Source: a virus. Taken from it: a DNA stretch of 45,285 nucleotides. Shown piece by piece: positions 16,152-45,140 of the stretch; within the stretch, counting starts at the first letter, position 1, and every line of letters begins with the position of its first letter. Where the stretch lies: positions 1-45,285 of the IMG/VR virus record IMGVR_UViG_3300023292_000016; one strand, 5' to 3'. The notes beneath the pieces were generated by a model. The model saw only the letters and a list, made by a program, of their open reading frames with translations. It did no database searches and was not told the origin of the DNA. Both the position numbers and the translations under genes were made by a program.

Positions 16152-16521
16152 GGGTCTGAAATGGCTTCGATTGGTTGTTTGTTTGTTACAACTGCATTCG
16201 GTGAAAATTCTAATCAACACCTTAAAAGGTTTGGAAACTTAAAGTAATTGCAGATGATTATAATTACGAATATGCAATGGCCGCTTAAAGGCTTTGCCGT
16301 TTCTTCATATGTTTCCTGGACGTATGAAAGAGGCGTAGACTAAACAGGATACGTTATACATCTTTTCGTGTTAAACGGTGTATAACAAAGGCATTGTAAC
16401 ACGGTCAATGAACAGTTTATAAAGTTTGGGTTCATTGATTTACACAAACTTTATGATGAATGTAACTCAGTTAGTAATGGATACAGTCAAGACCTCGGTT
16501 CGACTCCGAGCAGATCCACCA
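16152..16521 (+). ncRNA. ssrA: tmRNA (ssrA) with tag ADDYNYEYAMAA
   Basis: A 370-nt tmRNA. GGGTCTG (16152-16158) pairs with CAGATCC (16511-16517), followed by A and encoded CCA. The 3' T arm reads CTCGG-TTCGACT-CCGAG. The tag frame starts at GCA 16250 and runs to TAA 16286-16288, encoding ADDYNYEYAMAA, whose AMAA end resembles the AxAA degradation tags. Downstream pairs such as TTATACA/TGTATAA fit the pseudoknot domain. tmRNA with SmpB rescues stalled ribosomes and tags products for proteolysis; no smpB gene is seen here. Confidence 0.95.
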
Positions 16522-23416: not shown

Positions 23417-23811
23417 AGGAATTTGAGGATGGACCAATTACTAAGGTGAGAATTATCGCAGCGAGAGATACTGCTGCATATCGTATAGAAAGGGAAAGGG
23501 AAAGAAATAGGATGAAGGAACACTATACAATTAAAAAGCTTGAAGAGTTACTGGAAATTTTAGAATCTTCTTGTATTGACGACCCTGAAGATATACTTAA
23601 TGATTTGGTTATAAAAGGCCCTCTTTTAATTAAGGAAGTATTATCATATCGTTATAGAAATGATTTAATACAAAAGATTATTAAGGCCATTTTTGAAGAT
23701 TTAGAAAAGGAGTTACAGAATTATAATGAATATGGGGTCGAATGGTTTAAATTTATATCAGAGAGAAGTTTAAATAAAATTTTAGATAAATGGGAGAAGG
23801 AGGTAGTATGA
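23413..23811 (+). CDS. Helical charged hypothetical protein (132 aa)
   Basis: Very rich in Arg/Glu at the N terminus (RIERERERNRMKE) and helical throughout, with no Cys pairs or membrane segment. It is coupled by ATGA overlaps to both neighbours. No family recognised. Confidence 0.6.
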   Translation: MKEFEDGPITKVRIIAARDTAAYRIERERERNRMKEHYTIKKLEELLEILESSCIDDPEDILNDLVIKGPLLIKEVLSYRYRNDLIQKIIKAIFEDLEKELQNYNEYGVEWFKFISERSLNKILDKWEKEVV

Positions 23812-24581
23812 AAGCAGTATTTGTAGAAGAAAAAACGATAGATTCCACCTGGTATAGTTTATTGGAAAAAATAAATCAATTTGGAAATATAAATAAGATA
23901 GATTCAGGAAGTTATCAAGGTTCCAAAAGGCTTGAATTTAATTATGTTTCCGGTGTTATACAATATCCAACTACAAGACCTTTATCACCTATTTTACCTG
24001 AAGGTATACCACCTGTAACTACTGATGTTGACATTGAGAATTACTTCGTCAATTATCTTATGGATGGTAGTCTTTCCCTTGGAGAGCATTATAAATACGC
24101 AACATGGATTACAGGTGGTGGTTATAAGGTACCATCTTTGAGGATGGTTAATGAAGAAGGTGAAAGAGGAGATGGACAGTGGGTCGTAGTTCCTAATCAA
24201 ATTCAATGGTGTATCGATCACTATAAAGAGAAAGGATTTGGTAATAATCATTGCTATATTCAGGTGGGTTATCCTGAGAGCAACATGGCATATGATATAC
24301 CTTACAAGGAGGAGACAGAACGAGGAACAAGTCCGTGCTTACGTGGAATTGATACACATATTGTTAAAGATAAAGATGAATACTATCTTAATTTTCATAT
24401 CTATTTCCGTTCCTGGGACCTATGGGGAGCTTTCCCTGTTAATATAGGAGGAATTGTAATGCTACAAGAATATATGGCTAATGAATTAGGAGTAAAAGTG
24501 GGTATATTAGCCTTTTCCTCATTAAAATTGCATTGCTATGATTTTCAGTTAGATGTAGTTCGTGATCGCTTAGGAAAATAA
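23808..24581 (+). CDS. Thymidylate synthase-family protein
   Basis: A 257-residue protein of the thymidylate synthase/dNMP hydroxymethylase superfamily. The nucleophile is probably C177 in SPCLRG. RSWDLWGAFPVN (201-212) matches the conserved RSxDxxxGxPxN phosphate/base-binding segment, and LKLHCYDF the C-terminal HxYxxH-like element. N212 is the residue that separates dUMP from dCMP enzymes in classical ThyA, favouring dUMP, but the sequence is divergent (archaeal-like CLR at the active Cys). ATG 23808 is coupled to the upstream stop with GAAGGAGG. It fits the nearby ribonucleotide reductase. Confidence 0.8.
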   Translation: MKAVFVEEKTIDSTWYSLLEKINQFGNINKIDSGSYQGSKRLEFNYVSGVIQYPTTRPLSPILPEGIPPVTTDVDIENYFVNYLMDGSLSLGEHYKYATWITGGGYKVPSLRMVNEEGERGDGQWVVVPNQIQWCIDHYKEKGFGNNHCYIQVGYPESNMAYDIPYKEETERGTSPCLRGIDTHIVKDKDEYYLNFHIYFRSWDLWGAFPVNIGGIVMLQEYMANELGVKVGILAFSSLKLHCYDFQLDVVRDRLGK

Positions 24582-24584
24582 ATT

Positions 24585-25583
24585 ATGAAGAAATTGACAT
24601 ATGATTATGTAAAGGGGCAAATAGAGAAAGAAGGGTATAAATTATTAAGTAAATCATATATTGATTCACATAATAAAATAAAATTAAAATGTCCAAAAAG
24701 TCATAAATACAAGGTTAGTTGGAATGATTTCCAACAAGGGGTTAGATGTCCTATTTGTAAAGGTATAAATGCCTCCAATAGGTCAAAATTAGGTCTTTTA
24801 TATATTAAAGAGGAAGTTAAAAGAATGACCAAAGGACAATATGAATGCCTTTCCTTAAATTATATAAATAATGTTACAAAATTGGAATTTAAATGTTTTA
24901 AAGGTCATATATTTAATATGATATGGAATAGTTTTCAGCAAGGACAAAGATGCCCTATTTGTTATAACGAATCTGATGAAAGGTTAGAATCATTAAGAAA
25001 AGGTAGGAAAACAATTCTTAAAAATGCAAAATTTTATTGTAAAAATAACTTACCTACCTTTGATACTTATGCTCCTCAATTAGAATGGTGTGAAGAAGTT
25101 AGAAGGAATATGAAAAATATAGATTTATTGGAGGTAAGGTGTTTTAAGTGTAATGAATGGTTTATACCAGGTTTAAAAATTATTAATAGTAGAATACAAT
25201 CATTAAAAGGTAGCAAAAATGTAAGAGGTGAACATAATTTTTATTGTTCAGATAAATGCAAGCATTCTTGTTCTGTATATGGTAAGGCACCTGAAATACT
25301 TATGAAAGAAGATGCTATTCGTGCCGGTAGATTAGGTTGGTTGAAACTTGATAGAGAAGTTCAACCAGAACTCCGAAAGTTAGTACTTGAAAGGGACGGA
25401 TATAAATGTGTTAAGTGTGGTTCTAAAAATAATCTTCATTGCCACCATATCTATCCAGTAAGTACCAATCCATTAGAGTCTGCTGATATTGACAATTGCA
25501 TAATTTTATGTTATACTTGCCATAAGTTAGTTCATCAAAAGGATGGATGCAGGTATGGACAATTAAAAATAGAGGTATGTTAA
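24585..25583 (+). CDS. Modular HNH homing-type endonuclease with zinc repeats
   Basis: 332 residues. Two N-terminal CPxxHxYxxxWxxFQQGxRCPIC repeats (about 36-62 and 98-125) are DNA-recognition zinc ribbons typical of free-standing homing nucleases. A middle Cys module (CFKCNEWF, YCSDKCKHSC) is followed by a C-terminal HNH core: VLERDGYKCVKCG, HCHHIYPVSTN, DNCIILCYTCH. The gene at 30070 shares the last ~190 residues. It sits between thymidylate synthase and RNR, a common target neighbourhood for homing nucleases. Confidence 0.85.
   Translation: MKKLTYDYVKGQIEKEGYKLLSKSYIDSHNKIKLKCPKSHKYKVSWNDFQQGVRCPICKGINASNRSKLGLLYIKEEVKRMTKGQYECLSLNYINNVTKLEFKCFKGHIFNMIWNSFQQGQRCPICYNESDERLESLRKGRKTILKNAKFYCKNNLPTFDTYAPQLEWCEEVRRNMKNIDLLEVRCFKCNEWFIPGLKIINSRIQSLKGSKNVRGEHNFYCSDKCKHSCSVYGKAPEILMKEDAIRAGRLGWLKLDREVQPELRKLVLERDGYKCVKCGSKNNLHCHHIYPVSTNPLESADIDNCIILCYTCHKLVHQKDGCRYGQLKIEVC
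25437..25501 (+). repeat. 65-bp segment identical to 30724-30788
   Basis: The HNH-core codons (HCHHIYPVSTNPLESADIDN) are encoded by an identical 65-base stretch in both HNH genes, while flanking codons differ at synonymous sites. This indicates recent gene conversion or duplication. Confidence 0.8.
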
Positions 25584-34726: not shown

Positions 34727-34987
34727 ATGCCTATTTTCGAGTATTTATGTAATGATTGTGGTTGTTATGAAGAAAAGTTAGAGTTTGGAAAAGAAATGGA
34801 TGAGAAGCATACCTGTCCAAAATGTAAGAAAGCAATGGATAGATTGATATCAAAGTCACGTTTTGAATTGAAGTATAATAATCGCACAGATATGTGCGAC
34901 TGGAAGGGTAATAGCAGTCACTATTGGGATGCTTATAAACAAGCAAGAGCTAATGGTCAAAATGTCAAACCAACTGGATCGGATTGA
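34727..34987 (+). CDS. FmdB-like zinc-ribbon protein (86 aa)
   Basis: Begins MPIFEYLCNDCGCYEE with a second pair CPKC near 36-39, the FmdB-type putative regulatory zinc ribbon. The C-terminal part, SSHYWDAYKQARANGQNVKP, is repeated in altered form at 35751-35855, beyond the GIY-YIG gene. RBS AAGGAGAAG. Confidence 0.8.
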   Translation: MPIFEYLCNDCGCYEEKLEFGKEMDEKHTCPKCKKAMDRLISKSRFELKYNNRTDMCDWKGNSSHYWDAYKQARANGQNVKPTGSD

Positions 34988-34988
34988 A

Positions 34989-35744
34989 ATGATTATCTAT
35001 AAAACTATAAATGAGATTAATGGTAAATGTTATATAGGTCAAACTATCAAACCTTTATCTGAAAGAAAAAAATCACATTTACAACGAGCAAATGCAGGTA
35101 CAGATTTTTATTTTTATAGAGCTATTCGTAAATATGGTTTTGATAATTTTAAATGGGAAATTATAGAGGAATGTTCATCTAAAGAAGAAATGGATGAGAT
35201 GGAATACCATTATATCAAACAGTATAATTCTTTCAAACCTAATGGATATAATTTAACTTGGGGTGGAGAAGGAAATCATGGATTTAAACATTCCGAAGAA
35301 TCTAAAAGAAAAATAGGATTGAAATCTAAAGGTAAAAATAATGGTATGTATGGTAGAAAAAGAAGTCAAAGAGTAAAAGATATAGTAAGTAAAGCTAATA
35401 AAGGGAGAAAGCTTACAGAAAATCAATTAAAGAAATGGTCTGAAGTGAAAATTGGTACAAAACTTTCAGAAGAAACTAAACAAAAATTGAGAGAACAAAG
35501 AATTGGTAAGAAGAATCCTTTTTATGGTAAAAAACATACTAAAGAAACTTTAAATAAAATTTCTGAAAAACTTACAGGAGAAAATCATCCTAATTCTAAA
35601 TTAAATAATGAAAAAGTGAGAAAAATTAAAGAGTTAGTAAAAAATAATGAAACCACCAAAAATATATCAATTATATTTAATGTATCAACTTCAACTATTA
35701 GAAGGATAAAAAATGGTAAAAGTTGGTTACATGTTACAATATAA
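34989..35744 (+). CDS. GIY-YIG homing-type endonuclease with NUMOD3 repeats
   Basis: 251 residues from ATG 34989, whose N terminus MIIYKTINEINGKCYIGQ supplies the GIY-YIG core (Y4, C14-Y15-I16-G17) with R26 following. From about 95 come NUMOD3-like DNA-binding motifs (HSEESKRKIG, LSEETKQKLREQRIGKKNPF, HTKETLNKIS) and a C-terminal helix-turn-helix (NISIIFNVSTSTIRRIKNGK). Typical of phage homing endonucleases. An in-frame upstream ATG at 34929 would lie inside the previous gene. Confidence 0.9.
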   Translation: MIIYKTINEINGKCYIGQTIKPLSERKKSHLQRANAGTDFYFYRAIRKYGFDNFKWEIIEECSSKEEMDEMEYHYIKQYNSFKPNGYNLTWGGEGNHGFKHSEESKRKIGLKSKGKNNGMYGRKRSQRVKDIVSKANKGRKLTENQLKKWSEVKIGTKLSEETKQKLREQRIGKKNPFYGKKHTKETLNKISEKLTGENHPNSKLNNEKVRKIKELVKNNETTKNISIIFNVSTSTIRRIKNGKSWLHVTI

Positions 35745-35750
35745 TATAAT

Positions 35751-35855
35751 ATGTGCTCATGGGGAAATGAGGGTTATTCTTCGAGTCATTATTGGGATGC
35801 ATATAGAGCAGCAAGAGCAAGAGGAGAGGATGTAAAACCCGCTGGGGAGGATTGA
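35751..35855 (+). pseudogene. Duplicated 3' end of the FmdB-like gene
   Basis: A 34-codon frame from ATG 35751 encodes SSSHYWDAYRAARARGEDVK, closely resembling the C terminus of the 34727 protein. It follows the GIY-YIG stop by 6 bases. It looks like the original 3' end of the zinc-ribbon gene (or of a second copy) left behind after the nuclease arrived with its own replacement end. Confidence 0.65.
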
Positions 35856-35863
35856 AATTAAAG

Positions 35864-37183
35864 ATGAGATTTGAAAATTTTTTAGAGGAATCTACTACAG
35901 GTATAACAGCATTTAACAAATATTTTAAAGACAGAGATGTTGAAACATTTTTAAAAAAGGATACCCCTGTATATGATAAACAAGGTAAGAACACTGATGA
36001 AATAATACCACAAGGAAGCAAAGTAGTGGTTCCTAAATCCTCCAAATACGATAATGGAAAGGTAATAGTAGTATATAAAAATATTCCTTACAATATTTCA
36101 TTCAATTTACTCGATAAAGGAGCAAAAACTGGTGGTGAAAAACTTAGGATAACCACTAATAAGCTTACACAAACAGCCAAATCTGAAATGATGAGTGTTG
36201 ATGGCAAAGAATTTGATGCTAAAGTATTTTACAGTGCTAAAGATATAGCTAATAGTGTTATTAATGGTATATATAATATAAGCACTATACCCGAAAATCT
36301 TAAAACTATAATAATCAAAAACCTTAATTCTAATAAATATTCTAAATTTGATTGGGGGACATTCGATGATAGAAAGTTAAAACAAGAAATATCCAAGTAT
36401 TATGGTGAAATATTGATAGGGTTATGTGTATTGAATGGGGAATTAAAGGTTTTTAATAAGAGCCCCATCAAATCTCCTAATGATGTATTGATGTTTATAG
36501 TCCCTACTAGTTCATCGTTTGCAGGTATAGATAGTATATTTGAAATGAAAGATGGTACTTTTATACCTATATCAAGCAAATCAGGTGTAGGTGCATCGGC
36601 ATCATTTCATGCTAACCTTATTCCTAAATTGATCTCTTATGTTGATAACGGTGGTAGAATTAACAATCCATTATTGAAATATATGACTAAAATTAACATG
36701 AAGAGAGATATTAAAAATATGGAATTCATTTATGATGTTGGTATGGATGTTTTGATGTCTAGATATTTAAAAGGTAGTAAAGGTAAATATATAAAAAATA
36801 ATTCATATAAAATATATCAGAATTTGGCTAAAGGAATTCTAACACCCATTGAGGAATATTTGATGGATGTGGTTAGAAATAATTCATGGCCTGTTACAAA
36901 AAATCAAAAGACTATTAATGATAAGTTACCCGATTCTTTTACTTATTTTATATGTCAAAATATAGCCTTTTTATTGAATTCGGATCCTAAAGCTATTCAA
37001 CTACTTACAAAACTACTTACATACTGGCAGGCTAATTTAGATTTGAAAAAATTTGTTTCAACTGGTGATGTTAAATTCAATATGACAAAGACAAATAAAG
37101 GAAATCTTAAAATGGTATCTGGAAAGGGCTCAATGTCATCAGTAAAAACCCAACAAGGAAGATTAACGTATATCATAAAATAG
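35864..37183 (+). CDS. Large protein with capsid-targeting-like N terminus (439 aa)
   Basis: ATG 35864 with GGGGAGG 13 bases upstream; start MRFENFLEESTTG has LEE before S, fitting the prohead-protease pattern. The body includes KVFYSAKDIANSVINGIY, a helical middle and a C-terminal NFLLN-like region, with no recognised catalytic motif. Lys/Asn-rich and soluble. Its size makes it the strongest candidate in the set for a virion-packaged effector. Confidence 0.65.
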   Translation: MRFENFLEESTTGITAFNKYFKDRDVETFLKKDTPVYDKQGKNTDEIIPQGSKVVVPKSSKYDNGKVIVVYKNIPYNISFNLLDKGAKTGGEKLRITTNKLTQTAKSEMMSVDGKEFDAKVFYSAKDIANSVINGIYNISTIPENLKTIIIKNLNSNKYSKFDWGTFDDRKLKQEISKYYGEILIGLCVLNGELKVFNKSPIKSPNDVLMFIVPTSSSFAGIDSIFEMKDGTFIPISSKSGVGASASFHANLIPKLISYVDNGGRINNPLLKYMTKINMKRDIKNMEFIYDVGMDVLMSRYLKGSKGKYIKNNSYKIYQNLAKGILTPIEEYLMDVVRNNSWPVTKNQKTINDKLPDSFTYFICQNIAFLLNSDPKAIQLLTKLLTYWQANLDLKKFVSTGDVKFNMTKTNKGNLKMVSGKGSMSSVKTQQGRLTYIIK

Positions 37184-37222: not shown

Positions 37223-38059
37223 ATGAAAAATAAAATCTTACAAGGTGATACATTAAAGGTTCTCAAAAAATTACCCGATGCTTTCATAGATATGGGTGTG
37301 ACCTCCCCACCATACAACAAGAAGATAAATACAGATGGTTCAATATTCAGATCCATCAAATATGATAAAGTACAGGACGATCTACCTGAAGATGAATACC
37401 AACAAAACCAAATAAATGTACTCGATGAGCTTTACAGAACTATAAAACCTGGGGGTTCATTTTTTTACAATCATAAGGTAAGACATCTTAAAGGTATAGC
37501 CACATTTCCATTAGAATGGTTAGTTAAATCTAAATGGCACATAAGACAAGAAATCATATGGGATAAACATACTTGTACTGAATGGGGTGGTTACAGGTTC
37601 CATCAAAAGGACGAGAGAATTTATTGGTTATACAAACCTATAGGTGGTAAAGTAATAGGTGTGAAATTGGAAGGTAAACATGCTGTATGCTCTTCTATAT
37701 GGAACTTTACACCAGATATGGATAATCCACATCCAGCACCATTTCCAGTTATTCTACCACTGAGATGCATACTATCGTTTATGAGTGATAGAAAAGGCTT
37801 GATTATAGATCCTTATATGGGTAGTGGAACAACGGGTATAGCTTGTAGGTTATTGGGTCATGATTATATGGGCATAGACATATCATCTAACTATATAAAA
37901 TCGGCAATAGATAGAATTTCTAACTTTAAAGATCATATAGATGTGTTAAAACAAGAACTTCTAATTCATGTAGTAAAAAATTCATATAAAGATAGACAAA
38001 AGAAGAAGAAAGAAAGGGATTTAAAGAAGAAGACCGTAATAAATAGTTTTTTTAATTAG
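37223..38059 (+). CDS. DNA methyltransferase (N4-cytosine or N6-adenine, beta class)
   Basis: 278 residues. The catalytic motif TSPPYN (27-32) comes before the AdoMet motif DPYMGSGTT (from D196), the order of beta-class enzymes; SPPY occurs in both N4-C and N6-A families. A Lys-rich tail (RQKKKKERDLKKK) follows. It modifies phage or host DNA, perhaps to evade restriction. An in-frame GTG at 37205 lies upstream of the predicted transcript and is unlikely. Confidence 0.9.
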   Translation: MKNKILQGDTLKVLKKLPDAFIDMGVTSPPYNKKINTDGSIFRSIKYDKVQDDLPEDEYQQNQINVLDELYRTIKPGGSFFYNHKVRHLKGIATFPLEWLVKSKWHIRQEIIWDKHTCTEWGGYRFHQKDERIYWLYKPIGGKVIGVKLEGKHAVCSSIWNFTPDMDNPHPAPFPVILPLRCILSFMSDRKGLIIDPYMGSGTTGIACRLLGHDYMGIDISSNYIKSAIDRISNFKDHIDVLKQELLIHVVKNSYKDRQKKKKERDLKKKTVINSFFN

Positions 38060-38076
38060 GGAGTTAATATGTACGT

Positions 38077-39162
38077 ATGAGTAATATAAAAAAATTGTTT
38101 GAAGAAAATTTTAATATGTTGTCCAGTATGAATATAAAGGAATATACTCTATATCGTGGTTGGCATCAAATACACAATAGAGAATGGTCCATAGCTGAAA
38201 AGCAAAAAATGTGGGAAGTCAAGCAATGTATTTGGAAACCAAGCCAACCAGAAGATTACCTAAAAATCCAACCAATAATTATTCCTGTAATAACTAAGGA
38301 TCAAAGCCTTACCTGGAATACTCTCCGCATATTTACACATTCGGCACATTGGAATGCTAACAAAGGTCGCATTAAAAGGTTTATTGTAATGAATAAACCT
38401 GACCTTACCTACATTGGAATCATATCATTAGGTTCCGATTTCATATCACTAAAACCTAGAGACGAATATATAGGCTGGTCAAGAGATGATCGTTTAAAGA
38501 AATTCCTCAGATATACAGCTATGGGTTCCTCAATCTCTCCAACTCAACCATTAGGATATAATTATGTAGGTGGTAAACTTATTGCTCTAATGGTTTGTTC
38601 TAAGCCTGTGGTTGATACATGGAATGCCTATTATAATAAGGAAAAACTAATAGGCATAACAACTACAAGTCTTTATGGTGGATTTAGTCAGTACACCCGT
38701 TTGAAGTATTGGAGGAAATGCGGCACATCTGAAGGTAAGATATCATTGGAACCATCTGATAATGTATATAAGGAAGCAGTAAAAGAATTAAAGAAAAAAT
38801 ATCCTGAAAAAATTAGAGGAATATATGAAGGTTCCAGACCTAAAGGTAGGATACTAACCATGATATATAGTAATTATGGTATAAGACCTCCTGCTAATCA
38901 TGCTCCAAGAGGTTCTTATTGGTGCAGGTTATACACTAATACTAATGAATATTTAAGAGGTGAAACTGAAGATTATGGACAGCCTTTATTTGATAATTCT
39001 ATAAAAGCATTAACTGATCTATGGAAAGAAAAATATGCCTCAAAAAGGCTAAAAAACATGATTGAAAATGATAAATACAATACAGAAATGCTATTTTATG
39101 ATGATTTAATTAAGTTATCATGGAAGGAAACTAAAGAAAAATATTTAAAAAGGAAATTGTAA
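38077..39162 (+). CDS. DUF4338/DruA-like protein (361 aa)
   Basis: The central region GIISLGSDFISLKPRDEYIGWS (about 113-134), GGKLIALMVCSKPVVDTW and TTTSLYGGFSQYTRLKYW, then GTSEGK, follow the pattern of DUF4338, the family of the Druantia protein DruA, with a GNAT-like core. It lies right after the DNA methyltransferase, so a base-modification or defence-related role is possible. The family call is from motif memory and needs a profile search. RBS GGGAG. Confidence 0.55.
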   Translation: MSNIKKLFEENFNMLSSMNIKEYTLYRGWHQIHNREWSIAEKQKMWEVKQCIWKPSQPEDYLKIQPIIIPVITKDQSLTWNTLRIFTHSAHWNANKGRIKRFIVMNKPDLTYIGIISLGSDFISLKPRDEYIGWSRDDRLKKFLRYTAMGSSISPTQPLGYNYVGGKLIALMVCSKPVVDTWNAYYNKEKLIGITTTSLYGGFSQYTRLKYWRKCGTSEGKISLEPSDNVYKEAVKELKKKYPEKIRGIYEGSRPKGRILTMIYSNYGIRPPANHAPRGSYWCRLYTNTNEYLRGETEDYGQPLFDNSIKALTDLWKEKYASKRLKNMIENDKYNTEMLFYDDLIKLSWKETKEKYLKRKL

Positions 39163-39165
39163 TAA

Positions 39166-41412
39166 ATGTCAAAAATAGGTATGATTGTAAACAGTCCAGG
39201 GCAAAGTAATAAACCCAAGGAAGTTAAAAAGGTGATCAAGCCCGAGGTTGTCAAGCCCGAGGTTGTCAAGCCCGAGGAAAAATCTCATCTGTATATAACA
39301 TCAGAAATTAAAAAGGTGATTAAGCCGAAGGTATTGTTTATATGTGATGTAAAGAATTGGGCATGGTATTTTAAATCCGTTCAATTGAAAAAATATTTAT
39401 CTAATGAGTTTGATATTACCTGTATCCTTGCTGGGGGTAAGATAGATCCCAAAAAATATGATGTATATTTCACATTCGGTTATAGCTATATAGATATTGA
39501 ACCTTTGAAAGGGATACCTAAAAATAAAAAGGTTACTGGTATTACATCACATAGACCTATAAGTGTAATAGAACCTAAGATGAATCTTGCTGGAGCTGTT
39601 CATGCTAACAGTAAATTGTTGCTTAGTCAATTAAGAAATATTCATGATAACATATATTACCTACCTAACGGAGTAGACGAAACACTATTTAGACCCACCA
39701 CTCCCATACCTAATGAAAGAGAAAACATTATAGTTGGTCATGTTGGTAAATTATCTCCATTAAAGGGTCAGTTAGAATTTATAGAACCGGCTGTAAAGAA
39801 AGCTAAATGTTTATATCATCCTAATTATAAAGATCATACTGAAGCTTTAACACATGAAACAATGCCGTCAATATATAATGGTTTTGATTGTTTCATTGTA
39901 GCAAGTCAAGAAGACGGGACACCCAATACAGCATTAGAGGCTGCCGCTTGTGGAAGACCTATAATATCCAATAGAGTTGGTAATATGCCAGAGTTTATTC
40001 AAGATGGTATTAATGGATTTCTCGTTGAAAAGAATGTTGATAAATATGCTGAAAAAATACTATACTTTCGTGATCATAGAAATGAACTGATAAAAATGGG
40101 TAATATTGCAAGAAAAACTGTATTAGAAAGCTGGACATGGAAGATACAAGCAGAAAACTATAGAAAAATGTTGTGGGATATAGTAAATAATAGAAAATCA
40201 ACGGAATATTCAAATAAAGGTGAAATTGAAAAGAGAATAATTGATATATCTAAAGAATTAGAAAAGATTGATGATGAGGAAAGGGACCTTATAAAGAAAA
40301 GGGAATCTCTAAAAGTTAAATCTGAACTACTTAAAAAGGATATGAATAATATGAAAAGGGATATGTCTCCAGAAGAATGGAAAATAAAATATGGTCCAGA
40401 TGAAGGCACATTAAGAGATTTAGAAGTAATAAGAAGGGAAAAGCAAAAGAAGAAGAAGGAAGAACCAAAGCAGAAGGAAGAACCAACAAAAATAATAAAA
40501 AGAGAAAGATCTAAAAATGGAAAACCTGATATACTAATACTTTCAGATGTAAGGGGCTGGGCATGGGATGTTAAAGCTAAGAATATAAAGAAATGGTTAA
40601 GTGACGATTTCAATATATTTATAAGATATTTTCAATCATCCCCAACAGATAAGTTCGATAGGAAAGAAAAGTTTGACTTGTATTTTACATTTGATTGTGG
40701 TGCTTCACATTTCCTTTCTCATATACCAGCTGAGCAAAAATTGACAGGTGTAACATCACATACATATACCAGTTATAGGGGTAATTGGAAACAGATGTTG
40801 GATGGTTCTAAATTTCATCATGCTAATAGTGTATTGCTACAAAAGGAATTAGAAAAGTATTATAGTGAAGTATATTACTTACCTAATGGTGTTGATGAAA
40901 CCCTTTTTGCATTTAAAGAAAGAGACATAACTAAACCATTTACAGTGGGTTATGTGGGTAAAAATACTACGAGGAAGGGTTATGTACAATTTGTTATAGA
41001 ATCTTGTAGACAAGCGGAAGTAAAATTGAAATCCCAAGTATGTAGATTTAACTCCCCTAATGTGATAAAACCAGGGAAAATACCACCTTTCTATCATGAT
41101 GTTGATATGATAATGATTGCTTCTGATATGGATGGTACTCCTAATCAATTACTGGAAGCGACATCAACAGGTAGATGTTTTGTGGGTAATAAGATAGGTA
41201 ATGTACCAGAATTCATAAATGAGGGTATTAATGGGTATATGGTTGAAAGGAATGTTAAATCATATATAGAACGGTTAAATTGGATGAAGAACAATAGAGA
41301 AGTAGTACAGGAGATGGGAAGGAAAGCAAGACAAACAGTAGAAGAAAAATGGACATGGAAGATACAAGCAGAAAACTATAGAAAAATGTTCAAGGAGGTA
41401 TTGGGTAAATGA
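39166..41412 (+). CDS. Tandem double GT-B glycosyltransferase
   Basis: 748 residues with two full GT4-like GT-B domains. Each has a start of the type DVxxWAW (about 59 and 458), YYLPNGVDETLF, then EDGTPNTALEAAACGRP / MDGTPNQLLEATSTGR followed by NMPEFI / NVPEFI and ENYRKM. The charged coiled linker (about 345-445) separates them. The N terminus has KPEVV repeats. It is a gene duplication and fusion, perhaps adding two sugars in sequence or acting on both sides of a symmetric target. Followed by a dehydratase gene with a 4-base overlap. Confidence 0.85.
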   Translation: MSKIGMIVNSPGQSNKPKEVKKVIKPEVVKPEVVKPEEKSHLYITSEIKKVIKPKVLFICDVKNWAWYFKSVQLKKYLSNEFDITCILAGGKIDPKKYDVYFTFGYSYIDIEPLKGIPKNKKVTGITSHRPISVIEPKMNLAGAVHANSKLLLSQLRNIHDNIYYLPNGVDETLFRPTTPIPNERENIIVGHVGKLSPLKGQLEFIEPAVKKAKCLYHPNYKDHTEALTHETMPSIYNGFDCFIVASQEDGTPNTALEAAACGRPIISNRVGNMPEFIQDGINGFLVEKNVDKYAEKILYFRDHRNELIKMGNIARKTVLESWTWKIQAENYRKMLWDIVNNRKSTEYSNKGEIEKRIIDISKELEKIDDEERDLIKKRESLKVKSELLKKDMNNMKRDMSPEEWKIKYGPDEGTLRDLEVIRREKQKKKKEEPKQKEEPTKIIKRERSKNGKPDILILSDVRGWAWDVKAKNIKKWLSDDFNIFIRYFQSSPTDKFDRKEKFDLYFTFDCGASHFLSHIPAEQKLTGVTSHTYTSYRGNWKQMLDGSKFHHANSVLLQKELEKYYSEVYYLPNGVDETLFAFKERDITKPFTVGYVGKNTTRKGYVQFVIESCRQAEVKLKSQVCRFNSPNVIKPGKIPPFYHDVDMIMIASDMDGTPNQLLEATSTGRCFVGNKIGNVPEFINEGINGYMVERNVKSYIERLNWMKNNREVVQEMGRKARQTVEEKWTWKIQAENYRKMFKEVLGK
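39232..39276 (+). repeat. Three 15-bp coding repeats (KPEVV)
   Basis: GTTGTCAAGCCCGAG occurs twice in tandem (39247, 39262), preceded by a variant copy GTGATCAAGCCCGAG (39232). In frame, it encodes VVKPE units forming a flexible N-terminal extension. Confidence 0.7.
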
Positions 41413-42329
41413 AAAAAGTGTTGATAACAGGTGGTTCTGGTTCAATAGGTAAGGCTTTCATTAAAAAATATTATGACCTATATGAGTTCTATAATATCAG
41501 TAGGGGGGAGAAACTACAAGCAGAATTAAAAGATGAATTTCCTTTAGTTACTAATTACACAGCCTCCATTGAAGATGAATGTGCTTTATATAGTGTTTAT
41601 GATAAAGTGAAACCAGATATAGTAATTCATACCGCTGCAATGAAGCATATAGAAGTAATAGAACAACATCCTATACAAGGCTGTAAGATAAACATATTGG
41701 GTAGCTTGAATGTGATTTCAGCAAGTAGATGGTTTCACGTTCCTATAACTATAAATATAAGCACTGACAAAGCATGTAAGTCTAAAAGTGTTTATGGCAA
41801 TACAAAATTCTTAATAGAAAAATGTTTTATGGAAGCAAACACTGATAGAAATAAATTCATCTCTTGTAGATTTGCCAATGTTGCCAATAGTAGTAGTTCT
41901 ATAATACCGAGATGGAAAAAAATGAAAGAGGGTGGTATACCTTTGAGGGTTACTGATAAAAGGATGAATAGAATGATGTTTTCTTTAGAGGATGCTGCAA
42001 AATTCATATATAAATCTATTGGTATGTGTGATCTACATGGTGGTGGATGGACGGGTGTTAAAGGAGACATGAAAACTGTTAATATATATGAGTTAGCTAA
42101 AAGTATATCCGATGATGTGGAACTTATAGGTGTTAGATCTCATGTGGAAAAATTCGAAGAAGATCTAATATCTGAGAGAGAACTACCCTTTACTACTATA
42201 CTGGATTGGGATTTTTTTATAGTATCTAATATAGAAAGGGAAAATAACAGATTGACCGAACCTTATGGTACACTCAATACTCAAAAAATGACAGAAGAAG
42301 AAATAAAGGAAATGATTGGGGGAGAATAA
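41409..42329 (+). CDS. Nucleotide-sugar dehydratase/epimerase, CapD-PseB-like
   Basis: 306 residues of the extended short-chain dehydrogenase family. NAD-binding GGSGSIG (8-14); AAMKH near 77-81, typical of FlaA1/PseB/CapD UDP-GlcNAc dehydratases; STDKA near 118-122; and YGNTK near 129-133 (the catalytic Y and K). It probably converts a UDP-amino sugar to a keto intermediate used by the adjacent glycosyltransferases. It starts in overlap with the GT gene. Confidence 0.85.
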   Translation: MKKVLITGGSGSIGKAFIKKYYDLYEFYNISRGEKLQAELKDEFPLVTNYTASIEDECALYSVYDKVKPDIVIHTAAMKHIEVIEQHPIQGCKINILGSLNVISASRWFHVPITINISTDKACKSKSVYGNTKFLIEKCFMEANTDRNKFISCRFANVANSSSSIIPRWKKMKEGGIPLRVTDKRMNRMMFSLEDAAKFIYKSIGMCDLHGGGWTGVKGDMKTVNIYELAKSISDDVELIGVRSHVEKFEEDLISERELPFTTILDWDFFIVSNIERENNRLTEPYGTLNTQKMTEEEIKEMIGGE

Positions 42330-42330
42330 A

Positions 42331-43380
42331 ATGGCAGGAAATGTAACATTACTTTACACAGTGAGAAATAATTATAATATTTTTAGGTTGGCATTAGAAT
42401 CAGCTATTGCTTATATACCAAAGGAACAGTATGCTAATATAGTAATAGTAGATGATTGCTCTGATGAAGAAAATATATTAAATTACTTAAATAGTCTCGA
42501 AAATGACAAATCTTTAAATGTAACAGTTGTAAGAGGGGGTAAACCTAAATCATTAGGATATTATAATAAAACATCAAGAGGTAAAAATCCAGAACAAAAT
42601 ACAAGTCTGGGTCATGGTATAGCTATAAGTGCCGGTCTTGAATATGTTAAAACCAGATATGTTTTAATACTGGATTCCGATACCAATATACTACCAAAGG
42701 GTGTAAACCTTATACCTAATATGTTACCGTGTTTTGACCTTGATGAAAAGATACTTGCTGTAGGACAATCATCAGGTAGAATAGATGGTATAGTGATAAA
42801 TCATACAGGTAGATTTGAATATTATAAGGACAAATATAATGCTGAGACTACAGGTGGATTTCCAAATTCTTGTCTTATTTTATGTGATATGAAAAGTTGG
42901 ACAGAACATGGTATATCAACATTCGGTAACGCTGGATGGGCATCAGCTCCTTATTGTTATAGTTTATTTAAAGAAGGATTTAAAACCTGTAATTATAATG
43001 TATTTAAGGATGGTTATGCATTACACCTTGGTTATAGTACTGTTAGAGTTACAAGAGAAAACTTTACGGCAACATTAGGATTTGTTAAGAATTGCACAAA
43101 ATATGGTAGTTTAAGAGGTAGTGATGGTAGTATAAATGATTGGTATGGTGGATATTTTAGTGTTGGTCTAACTACAGAAGAATTATTCAATTTCTTAAAA
43201 GTAGAATATGATGGATTTCCATATGACCAAAGAAAATCTGTAATACATAAAATTATTTCTAAAAGTCTTGGTGGAGAAATGGATTATGAACCCGGTCCCA
43301 AACCTTGTACTAACCCATTAATTAAGAATTTCGATCCTAATAATCCTCCTATGCCAGATTCAATAAGATATAAGAAATAA
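42331..43380 (+). CDS. GT2-type glycosyltransferase
   Basis: 349 residues from ATG 42331, chosen for GGGGGAG 8 bases upstream over an in-frame ATG at 42316. NVTLLYTVRNN and IVIVDDCSDEEN form the GT-A nucleotide-binding region; YVLILDSDTNILPKG has the metal-binding DSD; TSLGHGIAISAGLEYV and SAPYCYSLFKEGFK follow. Probably adds sugars from the pathway fed by the dehydratase. Acceptor unknown. Confidence 0.8.
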   Translation: MAGNVTLLYTVRNNYNIFRLALESAIAYIPKEQYANIVIVDDCSDEENILNYLNSLENDKSLNVTVVRGGKPKSLGYYNKTSRGKNPEQNTSLGHGIAISAGLEYVKTRYVLILDSDTNILPKGVNLIPNMLPCFDLDEKILAVGQSSGRIDGIVINHTGRFEYYKDKYNAETTGGFPNSCLILCDMKSWTEHGISTFGNAGWASAPYCYSLFKEGFKTCNYNVFKDGYALHLGYSTVRVTRENFTATLGFVKNCTKYGSLRGSDGSINDWYGGYFSVGLTTEELFNFLKVEYDGFPYDQRKSVIHKIISKSLGGEMDYEPGPKPCTNPLIKNFDPNNPPMPDSIRYKK

Positions 43381-43398
43381 TAAAAGGAGAAAAAAATT

Positions 43399-44151
43399 AT
43401 GAGAGATGTAGATATAATGAGAACTTCAGCATCTAGACCTGATTATCTAAGGATATCAACAGAGTCAATGGTAAAGTTCTTAAAACCAACGGTGAATTTT
43501 CGTTGGATGGTTCATGAAGATCAAATAGATGGTGGAAGGTCAGATGAATGTATTAGATATGCTAAGGAGAGTGGTGTATACAGTGTAATAGAAAGACATA
43601 ATCCACCTATAGGGCAAGGAGCTTCACTCGGATGGTTATTAGGTAAATGCAAAACACCTTATGTATTAAATTGGGAGGATGACCAAGACCCTATAAAAGA
43701 AATTGATATAGAATCATTATGTAACTTGATGGATAATAATCCCGATATCAACCAAATAGGATTTCATAAGAGAACCATAATGCATGAGAAACCAGGCTTC
43801 GTTAAAAAACAAGTAGTAAGGGATGGTGTACCTTTAGTTACTGACCCTCATTGGGCATTTACACCTTCTTTATTTAGGTTAAGCTATTTGAAGCCTAAAT
43901 GGGTAAGTTTTGCTGATAATGTGCATTGGAAAATGAATGAGGTATTAAAAGGTGGTAGAGGCATGAGAGATGCTGATTGGGTAATTGCTAACACAGGGAC
44001 CTATTGGTTAGGTTGCATAAGACATATTGATATGCTTATGAAAGATCATGGATTCACAAAAGAAGAAGCTTTAAATTGTGATGATGGACGGTATCACTTC
44101 CATTTAGGAACTGGGGATGGTTCTATCAGGCATGGAAGGTATAAAGGGTAA
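43399..44151 (+). CDS. GT-A-like glycosyltransferase (candidate)
   Basis: 250 residues. RTSASRPDYLRISTESM begins a GT2-like fold; PIGQGASLGWLLGKCKTPYV precedes WEDDQDP near 93-99, which places an acidic triad where GT-A enzymes hold the metal-binding DxD. DPHWAFTPSLFR and DADWVIA follow. It lies in the sugar cassette between other transferases. RBS AAAAGGAG. Confidence 0.6.
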   Translation: MRDVDIMRTSASRPDYLRISTESMVKFLKPTVNFRWMVHEDQIDGGRSDECIRYAKESGVYSVIERHNPPIGQGASLGWLLGKCKTPYVLNWEDDQDPIKEIDIESLCNLMDNNPDINQIGFHKRTIMHEKPGFVKKQVVRDGVPLVTDPHWAFTPSLFRLSYLKPKWVSFADNVHWKMNEVLKGGRGMRDADWVIANTGTYWLGCIRHIDMLMKDHGFTKEEALNCDDGRYHFHLGTGDGSIRHGRYKG

Positions 44152-44168
44152 TATAAAGAGGAGGGATT

Positions 44169-45140
44169 ATGTTACGTCCGAAAAGAATTGTTATACTTGG
44201 TAATATACAGAATTATTATAGTGCCTTTCTATATGGCACACTCGAAGGAGCTATACGTTGTGGATGTTGGGCTAAAACTGTTCAACTTGTTAATAGGTCT
44301 ACGCATGACATCAAACTGGAATTAGATTGGTTCAAGCCCGATTTTATTTTTTGTCATATGATTTTTGGACCATTGAGACATGATGTGTTACAAATGCTTA
44401 GTGAAATGCGTAGAAGAATGGGAACAAAGGTATTGTATCACATGGGGGACTCTCGAGAAATACCCCGTTATCCAAAACCAATTGATCAGTGGGTTGACCT
44501 TGGGCTTGTTAATCACGGTGACTATCAAAAGTTCTCTAACATATGGAGGATACCTACTATACATTGGCCTTATATGGCATTTTATCAAAAAGATATAGCT
44601 GATTCTGATCCACGTTATAATTGTGATATGGCATTTACAGGTGATCTTGATTCTTCTACTCATCATGGACCAAGGAGAATGTTTATACAACAACTCAAAA
44701 GACTTATCAATATAAAGGTTTATCCAACACCACAAACAGGTAATACTCGTTTTCAGACAGCAGAACTTTCATCTTCTGCTAAATCCGTACTTGGTATGCA
44801 GATGGGTGTAAACATTCCTCTTTATCAGGACGTTAGACCTTTTCAATATTGTGGAGCAGGTGCTCTTTATTTTCATGATCAATGTGAAGCAATGGATACA
44901 TTTTTTGAACCTGAAATGCATTATATTCCTTATAAGAGAGATAATGCTCAGCATTTAAAAGAGCAATATGATAAGTATGTTATAAAGGAACCTAAAGAAG
45001 GTGATAAGATACGGAGACAAGGATTTGATTTTTGTCAGAAGTATCATTCAACAAAGGAAAGGGTACAGAGTGTATTGAATTACTTTGAAGGTGGAGAAAC
45101 TTTACCTATATACAAAAAGGATATAAAGGAGACTATATAA
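44169..45140 (+). CDS. CgeB-like glycosyltransferase
   Basis: 323 residues. An N-terminal Rossmann half (RIVILGNIQNYYSAFLYGTL), VLYHMGDS and LGLVNHGDYQ are followed by MAFTGDLD and a C-terminal donor half (GVNIPLYQDVRPFQYCGAGA, YIPYKRDNAQHLKEQYDKYV), the pattern of CgeB-like GT-B enzymes. RBS GAGGAGGG. It is the last complete gene of the sugar cassette. Confidence 0.75.
   Translation: MLRPKRIVILGNIQNYYSAFLYGTLEGAIRCGCWAKTVQLVNRSTHDIKLELDWFKPDFIFCHMIFGPLRHDVLQMLSEMRRRMGTKVLYHMGDSREIPRYPKPIDQWVDLGLVNHGDYQKFSNIWRIPTIHWPYMAFYQKDIADSDPRYNCDMAFTGDLDSSTHHGPRRMFIQQLKRLINIKVYPTPQTGNTRFQTAELSSSAKSVLGMQMGVNIPLYQDVRPFQYCGAGALYFHDQCEAMDTFFEPEMHYIPYKRDNAQHLKEQYDKYVIKEPKEGDKIRRQGFDFCQKYHSTKERVQSVLNYFEGGETLPIYKKDIKETI

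What the first reader, a model, noticed from the sequence alone, without database searches (positions are those of the whole stretch)
37223..39162. DNA methyltransferase next to a DruA/DUF4338-like protein
A beta-class methyltransferase is followed after 17 bases by a protein with a DUF4338-like core. DruA belongs to the bacterial Druantia defence system; a phage copy beside a methyltransferase may be a DNA-modification enzyme, a decoy or a phage-phage exclusion module.
Basis: partly seen in the sequence, partly recalled or inferred. Interest (0 to 1): 0.7.

Follow-up and report, generated by a model that had tools for sequence, protein, structure and literature searches.

The report
Phage DruA-like protein, probable DNA modifier
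A marine-type phage carries, right behind a DNA methyltransferase, a protein of the same family as the bacterial defence protein DruA; its predicted shape is closest to the DNA-modifying enzyme Mom of phage Mu, and its relatives sit beside phage replication genes and DNA-glucosyltransferase-like genes, so it probably helps to chemically mark phage DNA rather than act as a decoy.

Summary
Confirmed: window 37223-38059 is an intact beta-class DNA methyltransferase (SPPY motif, closest solved relative an N4-cytosine enzyme). After exactly 17 bases, 38077-39162 is a true DruA/PF14236 protein (E 4e-22). Its AlphaFold model (pLDDT 90.6) is a GNAT fold whose best solved match is Mu Mom (Foldseek E 3.5e-4; Z 10.3), although no Mom-family relation is seen by sequence. 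The relatives form a large phage branch, far from bacterial DruA, common in T4-like marine phages. 141 of 161 loci have replication or recombination genes within 3 kb. Two glycosyltransferase families searched independently mostly lie beside DruA-like genes; one folds like T4 DNA glucosyltransferase (Z 20.7, against 14.7 for the best other enzyme). So the DNA-modification reading is favoured (about 55%); decoy and exclusion readings have no support here. The methyltransferase pairing was found only in this virus and may be incidental. DruA-likeness in cyanophages and GNAT identity of DUF4338 are already published; the links to replication and DNA-glucosyltransferase-like genes were not found in the papers read. 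Enzyme activity, substrate and modified base are untested.

The parts
37223..38059 (+). Beta-class DNA amino-methyltransferase (N6_N4_Mtase), probably N4-cytosine; ORF also open from GTG 37205
   Evidence: PF01555 E 8.3e-32; best PDB match DNA cytosine-N4 methyltransferase 8s9m E 5.9e-45
37304..37315 (+). Motif IV SPPY
   Evidence: sequence; SPPY is the motif of most N4C enzymes (PMC8885841)
37808..37828 (+). Motif I DPYMGSG (SAM binding)
   Evidence: sequence
38060..38076 (+). 17-base gap; contains GGAG at 38060-38063
38077..39162 (+). DruA/DUF4338 family protein, 361 aa, GNAT fold
   Evidence: PF14236 E 4.2e-22; model pLDDT 90.6; best PDB match Mu Mom 8bv8
38515..38592 (+). Predicted GNAT motif A: strand 147-155, loop QPLGYN, helix from 165; P155 Q157 P158 G160 N162 G165 G166 K167 invariant in 36 relatives
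38653..38694 (+). Strand 193-199 and following loop with invariant S198 and Y206 (candidate catalytic Tyr)
   Evidence: catalytic role inferred
39166..41412 (+). 748-aa protein with two glycosyltransferase group-1 domains, 3 bases after the DruA-like gene; possible but unproven partner
   Evidence: PF13692 E 1.6e-28, two stretches; not a member of families A6 or A8

Best explanation
The DruA-like protein is a phage-branch GNAT-fold transferase that most likely puts a chemical group on the phage's own DNA, as Mom does for phage Mu, so that host nucleases recognise it less well. In relatives the added group may then be glycosylated by a T4-BGT-like enzyme encoded next door. In this virus the gene was placed behind an orphan N4-cytosine-type DNA methyltransferase and before a two-domain glycosyltransferase. 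Shown here: family, predicted fold, conserved GNAT loop, genomic context, methyltransferase motifs. Inferred: acyl-CoA or similar donor, DNA as acceptor, protection from host defence, any joint action with the methyltransferase.
For: GNAT fold with Mu Mom the best solved match by both methods, although the Z margin over other GNATs is small. DUF4338 described independently as a GNAT domain (PMC10853773). Invariant residues cluster in the motif-A region: 10 of 16 fall in residues 150-206, p 1.7e-5. Replication or recombination gene within 3 kb in 141 of 161 loci, in several different arrangements, for example between gp44 and gp62 in cyanophages. Reverse searches: BGT-like family A7 has a DruA-like gene within 300 nt in 55 of 80 loci (36 of 47 with full flanks); family A6 has one in the locus in 56 of 80; same strand throughout, with both DruA clades and both gene orders. 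The A7 model matches T4 DNA BGT at Z 20.7 and AGT at 16.2, other enzymes at 14.7 or less; profile match to 1bgt E 8.6e-4. No thymidylate-synthase/hydroxymethylase family gene and no Tet/JBP gene in complete phage HTVC008M or in a 146-kb contig that carry both genes. Mom genes lie next to DNA methyltransferases in two of eight phages looked at. Median dN/dS 0.10 in a pelagiphage set.
Against: No biochemical data. Profile comparison with the Mom family is not significant (1%), and Mom S124, mutated in the inactive 8bv8 structure, seems to be Gly in this family (inference from fold order only). No methyltransferase homologue within reach of the other DruA-like loci apart from one distant case. 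The window's own DruA gene has no replication gene within 3 kb and no BGT-like gene in the record. Only about 6% of DruA-like copies have A6/A7 glycosyltransferases nearby, and two 108-110 kb contigs have the BGT-like gene without DruA.
Confidence: 0.55

Rival explanations
1. It is a GNAT-type acyltransferase that modifies a protein (replisome, RNA polymerase or host factor), not DNA.
For: Most GNATs act on amines of proteins or small molecules; many ordinary GNATs score Z 8.7-9.7, close to Mom's 10.3. Phage GNAT Rac acetylates host RNA polymerase (PMC7824862). Position among replication genes would also fit a replisome target.
Against: Does not by itself explain recurrent adjacency to a DNA-glucosyltransferase-like family; Mom is the best match by two methods.
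Confidence: 0.2
2. It is a non-catalytic DNA-binding or replication accessory protein that keeps the GNAT fold.
For: Long branch from bacterial DruA (5.2 changes per column); constant residence in replication modules; catalytic activity of DruA itself is not established in the papers read.
Against: The strongest conservation is at the motif-A loop and the strand after it, where donor binding and catalysis occur in GNATs.
Confidence: 0.14
3. It is a decoy or inhibitor of host Druantia, or part of a phage-phage exclusion module with the methyltransferase.
For: True homology to DruA; defence-system pieces in phages are known in general, and Phold lists cyanophage DruA-like proteins under defence hits (PMC12774648).
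Against: Widespread in phages of Synechococcus and Pelagibacter, among replication genes rather than accessory islands; only about 22-28% identical to bacterial DruA; no DruB-E-like helicase in the scanned neighbours. Whether the hosts carry Druantia was not checked.
Confidence: 0.06
4. The methyltransferase and DruA-like genes are neighbours by chance; each works alone. (This rival concerns the pair and is compatible with the best explanation of the DruA-like protein.)
For: The pairing was found only in this virus and its 58-kb twin record; the closest methyltransferase relative, in phage P-TIM68 (49%), is in a phage that was not among those with a DruA hit.
Against: 17-base gap, same strand, next gene 3 bases on; Mom-methyltransferase neighbours recur in unrelated phages.
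Confidence: 0.5

Closest known systems
Bacterial DruA (PF14236; Druantia type I)
   Same: Same Pfam family; profile-profile 99.7% over 240 columns; shared RD..IGW, GGKL and TTSS..YNRLK-like blocks
   Different: 22-28% identity, separated by a very long branch; no Druantia partner genes near the phage gene
DruA-like proteins of Synechococcus phages (S-PRM1 and others, PMC12774648)
   Same: Same phage branch (clade II); S-PRM1 is in the hit list
   Different: Window protein is in clade I, nearest L072/L075 (about 50%); beside a methyltransferase, not gp44/gp62
Mom of phage Mu (PF25680, 8bv8)
   Same: Best solved fold match; GNAT fold; Mom genes can also neighbour DNA methyltransferases
   Different: No sequence-level family relation; catalytic S124 apparently not kept; extra N- and C-terminal helical parts
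Bdelloid rotifer N4CMT and phage relatives (8s9m, PMC8885841)
   Same: Methyltransferase aligns over 237 residues with the same VTSPPYNK motif
   Different: Target sequence unknown; phage orphan enzyme
T4 DNA beta-glucosyltransferase
   Same: Fold of family A7 that neighbours DruA-like genes in relatives
   Different: Not in the window; acceptor base unknown; no dCMP-hydroxymethylase family gene in HTVC008M

Membership tests
DruA / DUF4338 (PF14236) | Score above the curated Pfam cut-off | tested here: met
   79.1 bits against 27
DruA / DUF4338 (PF14236) | Profile-profile relation to bacterial DruA outside the Pfam model | tested here: met
   99.7%, E 1.5e-25
Druantia type I defence system | Partner genes, above all the large DruE helicase, beside druA | tested here: not met
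   Pfam scan of ten genes from 34.2 to 45.1 kb shows no helicase; neighbours are methyltransferase, glycosyltransferases, epimerase; the ends beyond the record are unknown
GNAT fold | Beta4-loop-alpha3 acyltransferase fold | tested here: met
   Foldseek 8bv8 probability 1.00, E 3.5e-4; about 50 GNAT entries at Z 8.7-10.3
GNAT fold | Acyl-CoA binding and transfer | not testable with these tools
   needs purified protein
Mom family (PF25680) | Match to the Mom profile | tested here: not met
   no Mom hit at E up to 1; hhalign 1%
Mom family (PF25680) | Catalytic S124 equivalent | tested here: inconclusive
   no residue-level structural alignment available; order of elements suggests Gly165/166
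Beta-class N4-cytosine DNA methyltransferase | Motif IV (SPPY) before motif I, both intact | tested here: met
Beta-class N4-cytosine DNA methyltransferase | m4C product and target sequence | not testable with these tools
   needs sequencing or LC-MS
T4-BGT-like DNA glucosyltransferase (partner in relatives) | Present in the window | tested here: not met
   no match to A6 or A8 profiles in the window
T4-BGT-like DNA glucosyltransferase (family A7 in relatives) | Fold and sequence-profile match to T4 BGT | tested here: met
   Z 20.7, 296 residues; E 8.6e-4

The most novel reading that the evidence does not exclude
Phage DruA-like proteins are a second class of Mom-fold DNA-base transferases. In hydroxymethylase-free T4-like phages they make the acceptor group for neighbouring BGT-like glycosyltransferases, giving an undescribed DNA hypermodification; by extension, bacterial DruA would mark DNA in Druantia defence.
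Probability: 0.25. Interest if true: 0.85.

Novelty: new variant of a known kind. Interest (0 to 1): 0.6.

Why it matters
DruA is a component of a defence system whose biochemical role I did not find described. A large phage branch of the same family, embedded in replication modules and next to DNA-glucosyltransferase-like genes in cultured Pelagibacter phage HTVC008M, gives a directly testable prediction: look for a modified base in that phage. If it holds, a chemistry would be assigned to DUF4338 and a new kind of DNA hypermodification would be found in some of the commonest ocean viruses.

Tried and rejected
Membership of the Mom family by sequence: rejected. A conserved methyltransferase-DruA pair: no second case in 160 other loci, apart from a distant methyltransferase 1.9 kb from DruA in L162. 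The upstream 443-aa gene as a restriction partner: no Pfam family above cut-off; its only phage relative is a Cr30 hypothetical protein, so this was left open. Short-palindrome avoidance as a sign of modification: all-round mild avoidance with CTAG and GATC lowest, not informative. The 443-aa and methyltransferase proteins have no close relatives in viral contigs beyond the twin record. No solved structure matches DruA by sequence. DruA's mechanism was not found in the Druantia papers searched; the main paper on the Mom active site is not held.

Full report
OBSERVATION. Pfam gives N6_N4_Mtase E 8.3e-32 and DruA (PF14236, the former DUF4338) E 4.2e-22, both far above the curated cut-offs; PHROGs and PADLOC agree. 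The next gene, a 748-aa protein with two glycosyltransferase group-1 domains, starts 3 bases after the DruA-like stop codon.

THE METHYLTRANSFERASE. Motif IV (TSPPYN) comes before motif I (DPYMGSGTT), the beta-class order. The closest solved relatives are DNA cytosine-N4 methyltransferases 8s9m and 8s9n, E about 6e-45, with an identical VTSPPYNK stretch. SPPY is shared by most bacterial N4C enzymes, and the rotifer N4CMT clusters with phage enzymes of unknown target (PMC8885841). I therefore predict N4-methylcytosine; the target sequence is unknown. The closest phage relative is in Prochlorococcus phage P-TIM68, 49%.

THE DRUA-LIKE PROTEIN. Bacterial genes annotated as Druantia DruA match at 25-28%, and profile-profile comparison is decisive (99.7%, E 1.5e-25). 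In a tree the phage proteins are separated from bacterial DruA by a very long branch (the root is for drawing only) and form two groups, here called clade I and clade II; the split is only moderately supported (80/15 and 93/76). The window protein lies in clade I next to L072 and L075 (99/97).

FOLD. An AlphaFold2 model from 36 relatives has pLDDT 90.6 and pTM 0.88. The best solved match is Mu Mom 8bv8 by Foldseek (E 3.5e-4, probability 1.00) and by VIA-align (Z 10.3, rmsd 3.9, 168 residues); ordinary GNATs follow at Z 8.7-9.7, so the GNAT fold is firm and the special closeness to Mom is suggestive only. This agrees with a published note that DUF4338 is a GNAT domain (PMC10853773). Sequence comparison with nine Mom proteins is not significant, so it is not filed as Mom. 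The invariant residues P155, Q157, P158, G160, N162, G165, G166 and K167 lie in the strand-loop-helix that corresponds to GNAT motif A, and S198 and Y206 follow the next strand; 10 of 16 invariant residues fall in residues 150-206 (p 1.7e-5). Reading these as donor site and catalytic residues is inference.

CONTEXT IN RELATIVES. In cyanophages the gene sits between the clamp-loader genes gp44 and gp62; in Pelagibacter phages it lies between gp46/peptide deformylase and MazG/peptidase genes; in others between gp41 helicase and DNA polymerase. In 141 of 161 loci a replication or recombination gene lies within 3 kb. The arrangements are mixed over the tree (16 changes against a minimum of 7), so the gene was re-placed several times within replication modules. 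The window itself is an exception, with no such gene within 3 kb. Pelagiphage copies show median dN/dS 0.10.

GLYCOSYLTRANSFERASE LINK. Two families (A6, A7) were seen beside DruA-like genes of both clades. They were then used as independent queries. A7: 58 of 80 loci hold a DruA-like gene, 55 within 300 nt (36 of 47 with full flanks), clade I downstream or clade II upstream. A6: 56 of 80 hold one, mostly clade II upstream, in a few cases clade I. All are on the same strand. The loci are related to each other, so these are not independent events; the swap of clade and gene order argues for at least two events in each family. The A7 model (pLDDT 89.6) matches T4 DNA beta-glucosyltransferase best (Z 20.7 over 296 residues), then T4 alpha-glucosyltransferase (16.2), then other enzymes (14.7 or less); the sequence profile also finds 1bgt first, E 8.6e-4. 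HTVC008M (complete) and a 146-kb contig carry the A7 gene and two DruA-like genes each, but no thymidylate-synthase/hydroxymethylase family gene and no Tet/JBP gene, so a T4-type hydroxymethylcytosine route is not evident. Against this, only 10 of 163 DruA-like copies in the first locus set have A6 or A7 within 1.5 kb, and two 108-110 kb contigs have A7 without DruA.

THE PAIR IN THE WINDOW. A methyltransferase beside DruA was found only in this virus and its twin record. Mom genes do neighbour DNA methyltransferases in two of eight phages fetched (Staphylococcus phage Alsa_3, Polaribacter phage P12002L), so such a pair makes sense but is not shown to be functional.

CONCLUSION. The DruA call is right. 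The best-supported role is DNA modification by a GNAT-fold transferase (0.55), with protein acylation, a non-catalytic replication role, and decoy/exclusion behind it. DruA-like proteins in six Synechococcus phages were already reported (PMC12774648), and one deposited cyanophage record (PQ898602) names its copy methylcarbamoylase mom. The replication-module residence over many loci and the link to BGT-like glycosyltransferases are the new points, and they can be tested in a cultured phage.

Noticed in passing
window 16152-16521: A full-length tmRNA match (Rfam RF00023, E 1.5e-48) together with nine tRNA genes between 1050 and 4832 in a phage record.
   Followed up: no
window 23790-25583: A thymidylate-synthase family gene stops within the conserved part and is directly followed by an HNH endonuclease gene (24585-25583); probably an intron or homing-endonuclease insertion.
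   Followed up: partly
window 34929-35744: GIY-YIG homing endonuclease with NUMOD3 motifs overlapping the end of the preceding ORF.
   Followed up: no
window 35852-37183: 443-aa protein upstream of the methyltransferase; only phage relative is a hypothetical protein of Caulobacter phage Cr30, 27%.
   Followed up: partly
window 41409-45140: Epimerase/dehydratase and two further glycosyltransferase-like genes continue the same-strand run after the DruA-like gene.
   Followed up: no
L063, L316 record, L074, L125: Some phages carry one DruA-like gene of each clade, for example HTVC008M at 86143 and 99541; the first HTVC008M copy lacks about 39 profile positions inside.
   Followed up: partly
BFVD A0A3G4ZXG3, A0A5K0UAJ3, A0A3G4ZRA1: Giant-virus proteins (Faunusvirus, Yasminevirus, Dasosvirus) are among the best structural matches to the DruA-like model.
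   Followed up: no
L171: DruA domain fused to a Tn5-type transposase in a bacterial genome.
   Followed up: no
L162:3547-7559: Phage-like contig binned as Bacteriovorax: DruA-like gene between clamp-loader genes, with a beta-class methyltransferase about 1.9 kb downstream.
   Followed up: partly
window, whole: CTAG occurs 12 times against about 92 expected.
   Followed up: no
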